A stretch of 64,000 nt of DNA from Nodosilinea sp. LEGE 06152 (GTDB lineage Bacteria; Cyanobacteriota; Cyanobacteriia; Phormidesmidales; Phormidesmidaceae), in assembly GCF_015207525.1 (NCBI RefSeq), contig NZ_JADEWR010000003.1:186255-250254 (forward strand). The letters are read 5' to 3'. The position numbers were made by a program, and so were the translations under genes. Positions 8,136 through 15,111 of the stretch are shown here, one piece after another. Position 1 is the first letter of the stretch. Each line of letters opens with the position of its first letter. Below the pieces are notes generated by a model that did no database searches, was not told the DNA's origin, and saw nothing but the letters and a program-made list of their open reading frames with translations.

Positions 8136-8518
8136 AGCAATTTACTTTGATCAAGAGAAGCGTACAAGCTTCATTGTAGAGAGCCAAGTTCACGGCTGTC
8201 TTGACCTAAAGGCTGATTGATGGGGCGATTGCTATCGTGGGCAGACCGATAACTCAAGGGGAGTAGCGATGGCCATCGCGCTTAGGACATCGGCCTCTTC
8301 CAGTGGCAAAAACTAGGACAACGCCATGGCGTATAGCCATCGCTTCAGGGGACAGTCATGTCCTAACCGCTCGGACGATAGCTATGCTAATAAGGGTTAC
8401 AGCTTTTTTAGAGGAGTTTTCTTGATAACAGGCAGCATCAGGGCAAACTAACCCTTTTTGACAAATACCCTCAGGGAGGCGAGTAGGACGTGAATTCGCC
8501 TCCCAACACCCCTTCAGT
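8136..8518. other. Intergenic region with palindromes
   Basis: No gene is seen. It contains a perfect 14-base palindrome GCGATGGCCATCGC (8266-8279), a HIP1-like site interrupted in the middle, and near its right end the hairpin annotated separately. It should also hold the promoter of the DUF1517 gene. Confidence 0.5.
8474..8504 (-). terminator. Hairpin after the cassette's last gene
   Basis: Arms GGGAGGCGA and TCGCCTCCC form a perfect 9-bp stem 14 bp past the stop of the 711-residue gene. There is no strong U-run right after it on the minus strand; a short T-rich stretch follows about 15 bases on. Terminator function is therefore only likely. Confidence 0.45.
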
Positions 8519-10654
8519 TCATTTAGTTGGGCAGGCTGGAACCCGTTTACAGATAAAGCCCAAAAGCTGAACTTCTGGGTTGCTGATTTGCGGAGCAGGA
8601 TAAAGGGTGAACTCTACCCTAGTTTCACTGGAGTTAGCCTGGGACGCAATCTCCACCGTTTGAGTAGCCGGGATAATTTTCTCAGCAGTTTCGCTCGATA
8701 GCATGATCTGATACCGACCAGGACTGAGAGACACAATCGTTTCTGAGCGATTGTTCAAAACCTCAACCTGCTGAGAATGTTTCCCTTCGATCATCACCTT
8801 AGCTGCCCCTGTAAAGGGATAAGTTTTGCCAGCAACCTGTTCCAGTAGGCAAATCTTTAGTTGCCCGGTGGCTTCAGGGACCATAGTAATGACGGGCGGG
8901 TTTGTAGTCTGAGGAACGGTAACAAATCCGCTGGCCGTGATGAAACCTGGTTTATCAACCTTGACGGCGTAGCGTCCCTGGGGGAGCCGAGCCGTGAAAT
9001 CGCCATTCTGACCTGTATGCACAAACCGTGTACCGTGTGGTGTCTGTATCGTCACCATAGCCTGGTATAACCCTCGACCTTGAGGATCAACTACCTGCCC
9101 TCGAGCTGGCATCATCAGAGCTTCGCGCTGAAGTAAATCAATCCGATGCCTGAACTGCTGAGGAAACAACTTACTATTTAGTTGACCTGTTGGCTGGATG
9201 TCTACAGGCCTCAACTTCGCTGCATCGGCTACTTGCAGCTGAGCGTTTTTTGAAAGATCCATTTGGGAAGGCGAAGACTGGATGGCTTTGGCCACTTTGA
9301 ATTGAGATGCTTGGGCAAGGGCTGGCTGAATAGAATGGCTGCTAATCAGTGGAGCGACCTGCCCCGATGCGACTGCCGATTTGACCCGCAAATTGTAGGC
9401 GGAAGTTGTTTTGTGTTCTAACAAAGCCGAGTTCACCTGTAGGGAATTGACCTGCATAACTTGAGCTGCCAAGATTTCGTTGGGGGTAATGGCATAGGTG
9501 AGCAAATCGGAGCTATCCACCGTTGCAGCCTGAACCGTTGCGACTTTGGCAGTTGCGGCCTGGGCCTGGGCAAAGTGCTTTTGCGAAGTTGGCACTCCTT
9601 TAACAACCACGTTGCGGGCAAGCACCAGACCAAAAACGTAGCCAGGAATCAACTTTTCGGTATTACCGTTTAAGACACCGTCCGAAACGGGCCGTGAGGG
9701 GTTACGCCATTTCCAGTTTTGGTGCTCAAACAGGGCAGGCCACAGCCAGGGACGGGAGCAGGTGACGGTTTGCACTTCTAGGGTGATGGACTCAATTTCA
9801 CTGTCGTCAAGCCCCGCTGCTCCGCCGGGGGAGGAGGTGCCATTGCTCTGCCACTGGGCGATGTCTTCACGGGTCAGTTTGAGGGGAATCCAGTTGTCTT
9901 CCGACAGATGAGATGGCGAAAAGTGGCAACCAACATGGGTAGCATGGGAAATTGGGTCGGCAATTCGCATCAAGGGGATAGCAGCCACCATGTCGCGCAC
10001 AGCCAGGGGAATGCTGTCAATGTCTCGCTCCGCTGCGTCAATAATGCCTTCCGCCGATCGGAAGTTGTGAACTCGATCAATCGCCTCTAGGGCCTCGCGC
10101 TGCTCTTTAACCAGGCTCTCCAGGGCGCTGAGTTCCCCTGCCAAAACCGTTTGCTCTTGAATGCTTTGGGCCCTTTGATGGTTCAGGCGCATAGCCATCA
10201 AGGCGACTTCTTTTTTTTCAAGATCAGCCCGTAGTAGGCAAAATTCCTGGTAGTCGGGTCGCTTAATGATTTGCGGCTCCTCATAAAGCAACGCCTGGGC
10301 CTGATCGTAACGGCGTTGTTCGGCCTCGCCTAGAGGGGGTCTAACAAATTGAACGTTGGCCAAAATTTGTGGGAAACGCTCCGATAAAAAACCTGGGGAA
10401 TCATCTGGGGAAACTACCGTTTCTGAGTTGATCTGAATGCAGTCGACCAGACGAGAGATTTCGACTAAACGGGCTACCGACTCAGGCTGATCTAGGCGAT
10501 CGGCAGCAAGCTTTTGCAAAACCTGGAAATGTTCTTTCCCTAGAACGACCCCTAAGGGCACTTGGGCCACATAGAGATCGTCTCGACGGAACTCTTTAAT
10601 AACGGTCTCTGCCAGCTTAGAGAGCAGTGCTTTGCTGGCCTTTTGAGTAGACAT
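8519..10654 (-). CDS. Large protein with coiled coil and carboxypeptidase-regulatory-like domain; cassette gene 3
   Basis: 711 residues, no signal peptide or membrane segment. A helical N-terminal half includes a likely coiled coil (about 140-195). Residues 290-352 carry an unrecognised block: C-S-RP at 299-302, SDG at 324-326, LIPG at 335-338, VVVKG at 349-353. A linker rich in Ala/Gln/Val (about 360-500) leads to a beta-sandwich of carboxypeptidase-regulatory type (518-580, GQVVDPQGRGL...GRYAVKVDKPGF), a second beta-rich segment, and a final LLGFIC (697-702). The same block and LLGF-x-C ending occur in the next gene upstream. A strong Shine-Dalgarno AAGGAGG precedes the ATG. Function unknown. 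Confidence 0.6.
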   Translation of the reverse strand: MSTQKASKALLSKLAETVIKEFRRDDLYVAQVPLGVVLGKEHFQVLQKLAADRLDQPESVARLVEISRLVDCIQINSETVVSPDDSPGFLSERFPQILANVQFVRPPLGEAEQRRYDQAQALLYEEPQIIKRPDYQEFCLLRADLEKKEVALMAMRLNHQRAQSIQEQTVLAGELSALESLVKEQREALEAIDRVHNFRSAEGIIDAAERDIDSIPLAVRDMVAAIPLMRIADPISHATHVGCHFSPSHLSEDNWIPLKLTREDIAQWQSNGTSSPGGAAGLDDSEIESITLEVQTVTCSRPWLWPALFEHQNWKWRNPSRPVSDGVLNGNTEKLIPGYVFGLVLARNVVVKGVPTSQKHFAQAQAATAKVATVQAATVDSSDLLTYAITPNEILAAQVMQVNSLQVNSALLEHKTTSAYNLRVKSAVASGQVAPLISSHSIQPALAQASQFKVAKAIQSSPSQMDLSKNAQLQVADAAKLRPVDIQPTGQLNSKLFPQQFRHRIDLLQREALMMPARGQVVDPQGRGLYQAMVTIQTPHGTRFVHTGQNGDFTARLPQGRYAVKVDKPGFITASGFVTVPQTTNPPVITMVPEATGQLKICLLEQVAGKTYPFTGAAKVMIEGKHSQQVEVLNNRSETIVSLSPGRYQIMLSSETAEKIIPATQTVEIASQANSSETRVEFTLYPAPQISNPEVQLLGFICKRVPACPTK

Positions 10655-10750
10655 AGGAGCCTCCTTGTAGTGCCTCCATGGGTGAGGTCGGCAGGCCCAG
10701 GACCATTGGGGTTCCCCTGTCCTTGACCCGCCGACATTTGCTTTGTGGGA

Positions 10751-12295
10751 TTAGATCCAATCCTTGACCTTAGGATTGGGATCTGGGCTCTTATCCAAGG
10801 TGTGGCACAGGAAGCCGAGGAGCTGTAGGCCCTCAACTTTCATGCCTTCGCGGGTGAAGCTGTAGTTGTAGTTGCTTTCACCTTCGCGGTTACTATGGCT
10901 ACCGCCCAGGAAGAATGGCCCGTAGGACAATCCGCCTCGACCGCTGACTTCCTGTGCTCTGCGCTCGTATTGGCTGTTATATTCGCCAAAGTTGATACAC
11001 AGATCTTTGATGAAGACGCAGTCGGTGGTAATGGCCGGCATTAACCCGTTGGGAGGGGTTCTGCCATCGGAGAGCAGGGTGTTTTTGTACTCTTCGTTTT
11101 GCTGGTCAAAGCGCCAGAAGCCACTCTTGACAAAGGCCAGGTTGATGGCAGGGCGGTAGATGGTGGCGCGGCACATCTTGAAGCTGAGGCTGAAGGTTTC
11201 GGCGTTCACCTGGCCTTCCCACTTTTTCTTGTCAACGCTGCCGCCACCGCCGATGGTAAAGGGGCCGATGCTCAGGCCGCCACCGCCGCTAGTGCGGCTA
11301 GCGGAGAACTTGTGGTTGCTGTTAAAAGACCCGCTGTTGAAGTAGAACTCAGTCCACCCGGAGTCGGAACGGGCAAATTCAGCGGGGGCTGGGGCCGTAT
11401 AGAGGAAGTTCGCCCCGGAGGAGGGGTTGGTTAACAGGCTGCGGAAGAAGTCTTCCTTGTAACGCTGTTTCAACAGGGCAAAGCTGCGGCCTTCTACGGC
11501 TGCGATCGCAGCATTAATCCGGTCGTAGGTGTCCCGGTAGCCGTTGCTGATCCAGTCATTTTCAGCCGCTCGCACCTTCATTTGCATGAGGGGGGCATTG
11601 ATTGCAAACTGGTGCACGGCCTGCTGGTCTTGACCGGCCAGCGCAGAAATGCGCAGGTTGTTATAAGCTAGGGCTTCGCCATAGTAGGCCAGCATTTTTT
11701 CGCGATACTTCTGCACCAGCGCTGTTTCGCGCGTAACCTCTACGGGTTCGTCGGTCACTAGGTCAACTTCGGTCTTGGTTTCCTGCAACAGCGATCGCCA
11801 GCGCTCAATTTTCTGCTTGGTTGCTTCGTCGGGTTCAACGTTGTAAACCTGTGAAAACTGAAGCGCCATAGCATAGGCATGGGAGATCCGAGTTTCCGGG
11901 TTCCAGACATTGATGCGCCCAGAGTTAACGATGCCGCTGGTGTCGGGCACCAGATCGCAAAGGGCAGAAAAGGTTTCTGCGGCCATATATTTACGGCGGG
12001 CATCGGCAGCCAGGGCAGACGGATCAACCTGGGCTTCTTCATCTTCGGCGTTAGCTTTATCAGGGCCAACAGCTTGATCAAGCTGGTTAGGATCAGCCCC
12101 ACGCCGAACAACTCCCCCAAACCCCTCCAGGGCATAGTTAAAAAAGTCTTGGGTCAGGGGATAACCTGGGCTACAAAATGCCAAGTAGTGATCATCACTT
12201 TTAGGAATGGCTTTACCATCACCGTTTAACAGCACATCACTGATTTTTCCCAGCACTGAATTCATCACTACTTCAGGTTCAACATTCTTAGGCAT
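10751..12295 (-). CDS. Large protein with duplicated glycine-rich motif; cassette gene 2
   Basis: 514 residues, no signal peptide. A mainly helical first part (about 95-290) is followed by a beta-rich part with two related glycine-rich stretches: GGLSIGPFTIGG (339-350) and GGLSYGPFFLGG (454-465). Residues 368-431 hold a block seen also in the 711-residue protein (CRA...YRP, SDG at 409-411, LMP, VFIKD), and LLGFLC lies at 492-497 near the C-terminus. I recognise no family. An AAGGA ribosome site precedes the start. It sits 96 bp upstream of the 711-residue gene and 68 bp downstream of the CHAP gene, all on the minus strand. Confidence 0.6.
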   Translation of the reverse strand: MPKNVEPEVVMNSVLGKISDVLLNGDGKAIPKSDDHYLAFCSPGYPLTQDFFNYALEGFGGVVRRGADPNQLDQAVGPDKANAEDEEAQVDPSALAADARRKYMAAETFSALCDLVPDTSGIVNSGRINVWNPETRISHAYAMALQFSQVYNVEPDEATKQKIERWRSLLQETKTEVDLVTDEPVEVTRETALVQKYREKMLAYYGEALAYNNLRISALAGQDQQAVHQFAINAPLMQMKVRAAENDWISNGYRDTYDRINAAIAAVEGRSFALLKQRYKEDFFRSLLTNPSSGANFLYTAPAPAEFARSDSGWTEFYFNSGSFNSNHKFSASRTSGGGGLSIGPFTIGGGGSVDKKKWEGQVNAETFSLSFKMCRATIYRPAINLAFVKSGFWRFDQQNEEYKNTLLSDGRTPPNGLMPAITTDCVFIKDLCINFGEYNSQYERRAQEVSGRGGLSYGPFFLGGSHSNREGESNYNYSFTREGMKVEGLQLLGFLCHTLDKSPDPNPKVKDWI

Positions 12296-12363
12296 GACAA
12301 AAGTCCTTAGTAATTACAAAAATTTCAGGCAAAAACATGAACAAAACGCCTGTGGCTTAGCCT

Positions 12364-13149
12364 CTAGCGAGATAGCAAAATGAAATCCTTGTTGGTATAT
12401 CCACGGGATTGGGAACACACCTCATAGCCTTCCCGTGACCCTTCATCGTTGGTGTTACCTTCAATGGTGTCGAAGAACAATTCATGAGTTTCTTCGACAA
12501 TACCAACGTGAGTCCAATCGGTGCTGGTACGCCGCACCAAAAACAAACTGCCAGGAGGGATCTCCCGATGTCGGGCCTCTGCCTCTGACACAAAGAGCCC
12601 TGCGGCCTTGGCCTGAGCGGCTAGAGAATCACAGGAAAACGAACCCTTAATGGGCATATCCACTTGCAAAGATTCTGTAGCCTGCTGCAATACAAAGGTG
12701 ACAAACCCGGCACACCAGGCCCAGGAGGTACCGTCGTTGCCCTTCATATAGGTTCGCACCCATGGGCCGCGATTTTGGCCGCCAATTTCGCGGGGGTGTT
12801 GGGCTAAATGAGCTCTAGCGTAATCTAGTACCGCTGAGTTTAACGACGTTGATATGGTTAACCGCTGACGCAGGGTTTCCCTTAGGGGTTCAACCAGATG
12901 ATCGAAGGTTTTTTGATTGACTCGACCATTGGCAGGCAAGAACATATCCTCTTGAAAACGACCTACAAGTTCTGCTGTAATTGGGCCGTAATTACCATCA
13001 ATGGCAACGGAATATCCGCGAAGGGTTAACCATTCCTGCACACGACGGGCTAGCAAGCCCCTTGCCCCGACAGAAATATCGCTATCAAGATCGATTTCGT
13101 CCTGAATCCAAGGTGCCAAACCCAAAGTTTGGCCTTCAAAAGTATACAT
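12364..13149 (-). CDS. Peptidoglycan-binding and CHAP-like amidase/endopeptidase; cassette gene 1
   Basis: 261 residues with no signal peptide. A PG-binding-1 domain lies at about 30-90 (VQEWLTLRGYSVAIDGNYG...FQ...). A CHAP/NlpC-like cysteine hydrolase domain follows (about 105-260) with likely catalytic Cys146 in WAWCAGFV, His214 in WTHVGIV, and an acid or amide in IEGNTN (230-234). Such enzymes cut peptidoglycan stem peptides or amide bonds. The missing export signal is odd for a cell-wall enzyme and suggests release by lysis, another secretion route, or action inside a complex. First gene of a three-gene minus-strand unit. Confidence 0.75.
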   Translation of the reverse strand: MYTFEGQTLGLAPWIQDEIDLDSDISVGARGLLARRVQEWLTLRGYSVAIDGNYGPITAELVGRFQEDMFLPANGRVNQKTFDHLVEPLRETLRQRLTISTSLNSAVLDYARAHLAQHPREIGGQNRGPWVRTYMKGNDGTSWAWCAGFVTFVLQQATESLQVDMPIKGSFSCDSLAAQAKAAGLFVSEAEARHREIPPGSLFLVRRTSTDWTHVGIVEETHELFFDTIEGNTNDEGSREGYEVCSQSRGYTNKDFILLSR

Positions 13150-14358: not shown

Positions 14359-15111
14359 TCATGCTTTGCCGTCTTTATAAGCTTGAGGCAACTGGTACCA
14401 GGGTAAATGAGGATTTAGATGATGCTCTCGGTGATACCCAAAATGGTAGCAAGCAATAAGCGACCAGAAAACTGGTAGATGAATGCTTTTAATATCTTGA
14501 CCATATTCAGGTGCGTTGTCGCGTTGCCGATGGGGAAGGAAGATGCCGAAGGTGAACAACTGTAATGAACTGAGCACCATGGGAATAATCCAAAAAAGAA
14601 TCAGATTAGTCGCTGGAATGCCGCAAACCATCAAGGCACCGAAAATCAAACTAATGCCAATTAGCGACACCCAAATCTGCCCACCCGTCTGGTAAGTTTT
14701 CATAAACTGGATGTACCAGAGCCAGAATTCCCCCATACCTACATCATGATGGTCAGGATCTTGTTCGGTCGCGGGAAAGCGATGGTGGAGTCGGTGGTTC
14801 TTAGCCAGTAGCTGATAGGGTAATAGTGCGTATAGCCACGAGGTCACATAACCGAATGCGTCGTTCAGCCTATGAAAACCAGAAATATTTCTGTGAATGG
14901 CTTCGTGGGTAACGATGAATAAACCAGTGTGTAAAAATGTTCTGACCAGAATTGCCCAGAGCCAACAAAACAAGGGAGTTTGAGCATCGAATAGGGTAAA
15001 GGTACCCGCTAAACTGACAAGCCACATCAATCCGATTAAGCCAGCCCAGTACAGACTCAACTGAGATTGGCTAAAGCTTTTGAAGGGGTGTGATGGTGAT
15101 TGACTGACCAT
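14359..15111 (-). CDS. crtW: Beta-carotene ketolase, CrtW type
   Basis: A 250-residue membrane di-iron enzyme of the fatty-acid-hydroxylase/desaturase superfamily, expected to add 4-keto groups to beta-ionone rings (echinenone, canthaxanthin). Histidine boxes: HEAIH (69-73), HRLHH (106-110) followed by DPDHHD, and HFGYHREHH (223-231), each in the CrtW spacing. FGIFLPHR (188-195) and the PWYQLP end are also CrtW-like. Four hydrophobic segments flank the boxes. It appears intact although its neighbours are decayed. A related desaturase is the alternative. Confidence 0.75.
   Translation of the reverse strand: MVSQSPSHPFKSFSQSQLSLYWAGLIGLMWLVSLAGTFTLFDAQTPLFCWLWAILVRTFLHTGLFIVTHEAIHRNISGFHRLNDAFGYVTSWLYALLPYQLLAKNHRLHHRFPATEQDPDHHDVGMGEFWLWYIQFMKTYQTGGQIWVSLIGISLIFGALMVCGIPATNLILFWIIPMVLSSLQLFTFGIFLPHRQRDNAPEYGQDIKSIHLPVFWSLIACYHFGYHREHHLNPHLPWYQLPQAYKDGKA

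What the first reader, a model, noticed from the sequence alone, without database searches (positions are those of the whole stretch)
8519..13149. Three-gene cassette: signal-less CHAP hydrolase plus two large unrecognised proteins
Seen: a minus-strand unit of a PG-binding/CHAP protein (no signal peptide) and two proteins of 514 and 711 residues, with gaps of 68 and 96 bp, good ribosome sites and a hairpin at the end. None of the three has an export signal or membrane segment. Known: CHAP and PG-binding-1 domains act on peptidoglycan. Inference: the large proteins may form a particle, toxin or delivery scaffold that carries the hydrolase. The best candidate here for an undescribed system, possibly antagonistic or lytic.
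Basis: partly seen in the sequence, partly recalled or inferred. Interest (0 to 1): 0.72.

Follow-up and report, generated by a model that had tools for sequence, protein, structure and literature searches.

The report
Paired unknown proteins with endolysin-type enzyme
In a filamentous cyanobacterium, two related proteins of an unnamed family sit in one gene unit with a virus-type cell-wall-cutting enzyme; the same pair is found across many bacterial phyla, often beside a different wall-cutting enzyme, which suggests a lytic or toxin-like machine that has not been described.

Summary
The three-gene unit is real, with the stated coordinates and gaps. The two large proteins are not two separate unknowns: they are divergent paralogues of one family, here called A (514 aa) and B (711 aa; B carries an inserted CarboxypepD_reg domain). 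A has no match in Pfam, NCBIfam or the PDB and only chance-level ones in PHROGs and PADLOC. A and B form a conserved pair in Cyanobacteria, Nitrospirota, Bacteroidota, Pseudomonadota, Acidobacteriota, Verrucomicrobiota, Thermodesulfobacteriota, Bacillota and one archaeal MAG. In 60 loci where both are intact, 60 are on the same strand and 59 have A first; their distance matrices mirror each other (r=0.89). The CHAP enzyme is of phage-endolysin type. Its orthologue (54-56% identical) flanks A-B in two Nitrospirales and in a gammaproteobacterium; the latter has the same CHAP-A-B order. All 27 Weeksellaceae loci examined have a signal-less PG-binding muramidase right behind A-B instead. Close cyanobacterial relatives have A-B without a hydrolase, so the enzyme is a frequent partner, not an obligate one. 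Function is not shown: structure models were poor and no fold matched. Best reading (about 0.3): a bicomponent membrane-active assembly partnered with an endolysin-type enzyme.

The parts
12364..13149 (-). Gene 1: signal-less PG_binding_1 + CHAP-like hydrolase, phage-endolysin type, 261 aa
   Evidence: Pfam PG_binding_1 4e-10, CHAP 4.8e-5; PHROG endolysin 6.6e-13; orthologues 54-56% identical beside A-B in L043, L055, L159 with the presumed catalytic C146, H214, N232 invariant
12895..13047 (-). PG_binding_1 domain (residues 35-85)
12454..12732 (-). CHAP domain (residues 140-232)
   Evidence: slightly below Pfam's cut-off; conserved Cys/His
13096..13119 (-). N-terminal segment LAPWIQDE, of a kind shared by all four A-B-linked CHAP enzymes and one unlinked one; possible docking segment (speculative)
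   Evidence: not seen in the ten phage homologues read or in two unlinked Nitrospirota copies
10751..12295 (-). Gene 2: protein A, 514 aa, member of the unnamed A/B family
   Evidence: full-length relatives, most 34-43% identical, in many phyla; no database family
11249..11284 (-). Gly-rich loop 1 of A, GGGLSIGPFTIG (residues 338-349), the most glycine-conserved stretch of the family
   Evidence: position conserved
10904..10936 (-). Gly-rich loop 2 of A, GGLSYGPFFLG (residues 454-464), same motif as loop 1
   Evidence: G459 and P460 invariant
8519..10654 (-). Gene 3: protein B, 711 aa, divergent paralogue of A
   Evidence: hhalign of the A profile against B: prob 97.8, E 1.2e-12 over B 2-356; closest relative is B of gammaproteobacterium G617 (111 bits)
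9587..10651 (-). Family core of B (residues 2-356), largely helical then beta-rich in the model
8903..9103 (-). CarboxypepD_reg domain inserted in B (residues 518-584)
   Evidence: Pfam 2.8e-10; a similar insert in G617 B
8528..8572 (-). C-terminal family strand of B, VQLLGFICKRVPACP
   Evidence: matches the C-terminus of A and aligns with the C-termini of the B relatives
8474..8504 (-). Inverted repeat behind the B stop codon, 9-bp stem
   Evidence: read from the sequence; not called as a terminator

Best explanation
Shown: A and B are paralogues, inherited and co-diversifying as an A-then-B gene pair, and in several lineages they share a unit with a signal-less endolysin-type peptidoglycan hydrolase. 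Inferred: A and B form one heteromeric, cytoplasmically made complex. A's two Gly-rich loops with a GPF-type motif are membrane-inserting or beta-hairpin elements, so the complex perforates a membrane much as a holin or a bicomponent toxin does. The hydrolase is the lytic partner: it crosses that opening and cuts the wall, either in the producing cell (controlled lysis) or in a neighbouring cell reached by released complex. B's variable, sometimes domain-bearing insert (CarboxypepD_reg here) sets the partner or surface contact.
For: Paralogy of A and B. 60/60 same strand, 59/60 A first, median gap 96 bp, mirror r=0.887 with 0 of 2000 permutations reaching it; A and B subgroups match in the tree. 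Hydrolase partners: CHAP orthologue beside A-B in the window, two Nitrospirales and gammaproteobacterium G617, with A 49-51% and B 26% identical in G617; PG_binding_1 + Muramidase (E 1e-63) as next gene on the same strand in 27 of 27 Weeksellaceae loci although the gene after it differs; GH108 in L047, Peptidase_M74 plus CHAP in L043, CHAP-like genes in L125, L128, L130 and an LGFP protein in L046. Endolysin-type enzymes without signals need a way across the membrane (general knowledge); CHAP homologues are in phage Mx4 (43%) and in IMG/VR contigs at up to 49%. Gly-rich loops in A.
Against: Many A-B loci have no hydrolase beside them: the window's own genus and family, and others. Membrane insertion rests only on loop composition; the loops do not rank among the best amphipathic beta segments of A. 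AlphaFold models are poor (pLDDT 52.5 and 59.4) and no solved or viral fold matches. Neighbours are not only wall hydrolases: caspase, patatin, Peptidase_C70, hemopexin. CHAP also occurs without A-B.
Confidence: 0.3

Rival explanations
1. Release cassette, as in type 10 secretion: A-B is a large soluble toxin or particle made in the cytoplasm, and the endolysin-type enzyme exists to lyse the producing cell and set it free. Something else provides the holin step.
For: A and B lack export signals and are large; the hydrolases are endolysin-type. Precedent: the YenTc toxin complex is released by a type 10 system, and such systems are embedded in Tc toxin operons (PMC10847048). Neighbours with binding or toxin-like modules (hemopexin, LGFP, RCC1, patatin).
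Against: No holin- or spanin-like small membrane protein recognised next to the pair in the window; loci without any hydrolase are common.
Confidence: 0.22
2. Carrier with variable cargo: A-B is a delivery complex, and the adjacent enzymes (CHAP, muramidase, GH108, M74, patatin, Peptidase_C70, caspase) are interchangeable signal-less effectors that bind it, perhaps through a short N-terminal segment.
For: Partner enzymes differ in fold but share the position next to A-B and mostly the lack of a signal; a shared N-terminal segment in all A-B-linked CHAP enzymes; inserts in B differ between lineages.
Against: No structural likeness to any known carrier; the N-terminal segment also occurs in one CHAP enzyme without A-B and is not in the muramidases; the type VI sheath gene was found in only 5 of 46 A-B genomes and not in the window's.
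Confidence: 0.2
3. A-B has a self-contained role unrelated to wall lysis (surface, storage or stress protein), and endolysin-type genes landed next to it by chance or as separate defence or toxin genes in gene-exchange hotspots.
For: A-B without a hydrolase in many genomes; CHAP without A-B elsewhere; the unit lies in a stretch of lower G+C (about 0.47-0.56) than its flanks (about 0.57-0.64), as for acquired DNA.
Against: 27 of 27 Weeksellaceae loci keep the muramidase although the gene after it changes; CHAP sits beside A-B in three phyla, upstream in two lineages and downstream in Nitrospirales, always on the same strand and close.
Confidence: 0.23

Closest known systems
Phage endolysins of PG_binding_1 + CHAP type (e.g. 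Myxococcus phage Mx4 p76)
   Same: Domain order, lack of a signal peptide, 43% identity over 93% of the protein, presumed catalytic Cys/His conserved
   Different: Lies in a chromosomal unit with A-B, no phage genes recognised beside it; N-terminal LAxWIxxE-like segment not seen in the phage copies read
Type 10 secretion / holin-endolysin lysis cassettes (Serratia Chi, Yersinia YenLC)
   Same: Signal-less endolysin beside large signal-less proteins; works like a possible release or lysis unit
   Different: No holin or spanin recognised; partners are the paralogous A-B pair; no sequence relation shown
Bicomponent and tripartite pore-forming toxins (ClyA/AhlABC/Xax type, leukocidin type)
   Same: Paralogous soluble proteins encoded in tandem; helical front part and beta-rich rear part in the low-confidence models
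   Different: No sequence or fold match; no hydrophobic helix; no toxicity data
CarboxypepD_reg / prealbumin-like domains
   Same: Window B carries one above Pfam's cut-off
   Different: An insert in B only; 2 of 20 B members scanned match this family, so not a defining part

Membership tests
Phage-type endolysin (PG_binding_1 + CHAP) | PG_binding_1 and CHAP domains | tested here: met
   PG_binding_1 40.1 bits (cut-off 23); CHAP 24.2 bits, slightly under the cut-off of 26; PHROG endolysin match 6.6e-13
Phage-type endolysin (PG_binding_1 + CHAP) | Catalytic Cys-His(-Asn) conserved | tested here: met
   C146, H214, N232 invariant in four orthologues; the roles are taken from general knowledge of CHAP enzymes
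Phage-type endolysin (PG_binding_1 + CHAP) | Cuts peptidoglycan | not testable with these tools
   needs an assay
Type 10 secretion / holin-endolysin lysis cassette | Signal-less endolysin in the unit | tested here: met
Type 10 secretion / holin-endolysin lysis cassette | Small membrane holin (and spanin) in the unit | tested here: not met
   The unit holds only CHAP, A and B; none has a membrane segment by hydropathy
Pore-forming toxin families (ClyA-like, aerolysin-like, MACPF and others) | Family profile or fold match | tested here: inconclusive
   No match in Pfam, NCBIfam, PDB profile or fold search, but the models are low-confidence
Type VI secretion effector module | T6SS sheath gene in the same genome | tested here: not met
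   PF05943 not found in the window's genome nor in 41 of 46 A-B genomes
Known anti-phage defence system | Match to a PADLOC model | tested here: not met
   only a weak hit, E 0.019 for A
Prophage or phage cassette | A/B encoded by phages or viral contigs | tested here: not met
   none in 50,697 phage records; none confirmed in IMG/VR, by a pattern scan that can miss distant ones

The most novel reading that the evidence does not exclude
A-B is a previously undescribed class of paired membrane-perforating proteins, widespread in bacteria and perhaps archaea, that takes the place of a holin or toxin translocator for interchangeable signal-less enzymes, above all endolysin-type wall hydrolases captured from phages.
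Probability: 0.25. Interest if true: 0.85.

Novelty: new variant of a known kind. Interest (0 to 1): 0.6.

Why it matters
A protein pair kept in order and co-diversifying across at least eight bacterial phyla, repeatedly joined by endolysin-type enzymes and absent from the standard family libraries, is a good candidate for an unknown lytic or toxin apparatus. The Weeksellaceae (Chryseobacterium family) version (A, B, muramidase; 27 of 27 loci) offers a laboratory-friendly system in which the idea can be tested directly.

Tried and rejected
Structure route: AlphaFold models of A and B from 20-23 relatives came out at pLDDT 52.5 and 59.4; searches against PDB and BFVD gave nothing below E 0.01. 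Profile against PDB: nothing. Pfam over all A members: only chance-level hits. Type VI cargo as a general explanation: rejected, sheath gene in 5 of 46 genomes. Prophage origin of A-B: not supported. Direct BLAST of A against B finds only the C-terminal strand; the paralogy needed profiles. A Fisher test of hydrolases in operonic versus other neighbours (9 of 57 versus 1 of 307 clusters) is partly circular, because the query profiles came from the operonic genes, so no weight is put on its p-value. The Pfam control on 104 distant neighbours showed no wall-hydrolase family among the 25 listed, but families hit once are mostly not listed. Amphipathicity: the Gly-rich loops do not score among the best beta-moment segments. 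Literature searches found no description of the pair.

Full report
The observation. The window holds three minus-strand genes: CHAP (12364-13149, 261 aa), A (10751-12295, 514 aa) and B (8519-10654, 711 aa), with gaps of 68 and 96 bp. Shine-Dalgarno-like sequences precede them, and a 9-bp inverted repeat follows B, though it has no T-run and is not called as a terminator. None of the three has a signal peptide or a membrane helix by hydropathy. The unit lies in a stretch of lower G+C (about 0.47-0.56) than the DNA on either side (about 0.57-0.64).

The enzyme. CHAP carries PG_binding_1 (40.1 bits) and a CHAP domain just under Pfam's cut-off (24.2 vs 26). It is of phage-endolysin type: a PHROG endolysin matches at 6.6e-13, Myxococcus phage Mx4 has a homologue 43% identical over 93% of its length, and IMG/VR contigs have homologues at up to 49%.

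The two large proteins are one family. Direct BLAST finds only a shared C-terminal strand, but a profile of A relatives matches B 2-356 with probability 97.8 and E 1.2e-12. In B the family's C-terminal strand comes after a long insert that carries a CarboxypepD_reg domain. Nothing in Pfam, NCBIfam or PDB matches A, and the PHROGs and PADLOC hits are at chance level.

Distribution. One scan of genome contigs with an A alignment returned 26 loci, 34-40% identical over the whole length for most, in Nitrospira and relatives, Desulfobulbaceae, Xanthomonas, Sphingobacterium, Chryseobacterium, Acidobacteriaceae, Pseudoalteromonas, Verrucomicrobiota, Nodosilinea/Leptolyngbya/Halomicronema, Paenibacillus (28%) and one Methanosarcina MAG, which could be contamination. 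More distant relatives lie on two alphaproteobacterial plasmids. A-type genes are rare in broad samples: 4 of 386 cyanobacteria, 3 of 274 genomes of the Xanthomonas class, 5 of 198 Nitrospirota, 1 of 181 of an acidobacterial class; they are commoner in the Chryseobacterium family, 28 of 247. Matches to B were found in 12 of 59 genomes of the window's own family. None were found in phage records or confirmed in IMG/VR.

The pair is a unit. In 60 loci with one intact A and one intact B, all 60 are on the same strand and 59 have A first, with a median gap of 96 bp. The A and B distance matrices correlate at r=0.887, above all 2000 permutations, and the maximum-likelihood tree splits largely into A and B sides with matching subgroups. 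This is strong evidence for inheritance as a unit and, by inference, for physical partnership.

The hydrolase link. Orthologues of the window's CHAP, 54-56% identical with C146, H214 and N232 invariant, lie next to A-B on the same strand in Nitrospirales L043 and L055 (downstream) and in gammaproteobacterium G617 (upstream, as in the window). In G617 the contigs break inside A, but both pieces are 49-51% identical to the window's A; its B is the closest relative of the window's B and has a similar insert. That the two contigs are neighbours is inferred from these matching pieces. The whole trio thus appears to be shared between a cyanobacterium and a gammaproteobacterium, while close cyanobacterial relatives carry a different A-B type without CHAP; horizontal acquisition of the trio is the simplest account. 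Independently, all 27 Weeksellaceae loci have, as the next gene on the same strand, a PG_binding_1 + Muramidase protein, mostly about 275 aa, and this holds although the gene after it differs. Other lineages have GH108 (L047), Peptidase_M74 (L043), CHAP-like genes (L125, L128, L130) and an LGFP protein with a CHAP-like rear part (L046; the CHAP likeness was read by eye). Non-wall neighbours also occur: caspase (L047, L010), patatin (L054, L057), Peptidase_C70 (L057), hemopexin (L153).

Limits. Hydrolases are missing from many A-B loci, so they are partners in part of the family only. CHAP also occurs alone in three Nitrospirota genomes. The enrichment test is partly circular, and the control does not list most families hit once.

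Mechanism. The facts fix a paired, signal-less, co-inherited A-B unit that repeatedly acquires signal-less endolysin-type enzymes. Endolysins need a way across the membrane; A and B have no membrane helix, but A has two Gly-rich loops with a GPF-type motif. The reading committed to is a membrane-perforating A-B complex with a lytic partner (0.3). Close rivals are a release cassette for an A-B toxin in the manner of type 10 secretion (PMC10847048), an A-B carrier with variable cargo, and an A-B function unrelated to lysis. Type VI delivery as the general route is unlikely, with the sheath gene in 5 of 46 A-B genomes. The structure models cannot decide.

Noticed in passing
L123-L149 (Weeksellaceae): A-B-muramidase lies at one conserved chromosomal place next to tonB-like and parA/parB-like genes; a ready laboratory model of the family.
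   Followed up: partly
L263 7960-9792 (Paroceanicella profunda plasmid pD4M1C): A 610-aa protein with an extra N-terminal part, a PG-binding domain and a CHAP domain like the window's, beside patatin-like phospholipase and S8 peptidase genes and near AAA-ATPase/parB-like genes; no A-B detected there.
   Followed up: partly
L010 8558-13769: A cyanobacterium (G008) with three tandem family copies, two of them with an extra C-terminal part, next to a caspase-like protein with Tudor/Agenet-like repeats.
   Followed up: partly
L009 6957-10598 (Rhizobium sp. WYJ-E13 plasmid): A tandem pair of family members behind a 242-aa protein without any Pfam match, on a conjugative plasmid.
   Followed up: no
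L057 1626-9716 (Paenibacillus): Reversed order B-A, followed by an AvrRpt2-like Peptidase_C70, a patatin and a possible chitosanase; a GH25-like gene on the other strand upstream.
   Followed up: partly
L030 5521-8564 (Leptolyngbya sp. SIOISBB): A second, broken or split set of family genes in a genome that also has an intact A-B pair.
   Followed up: no
window 14359-15111: Beta-carotene ketolase CrtW-like gene just upstream of the unit, also in the low-G+C stretch (NCBIfam CrtW 234 bits, below the cut-off of 350).
   Followed up: no
L053 (Methanosarcina MAG): A complete A-B pair in a contig binned as archaeal; contamination not excluded.
   Followed up: no
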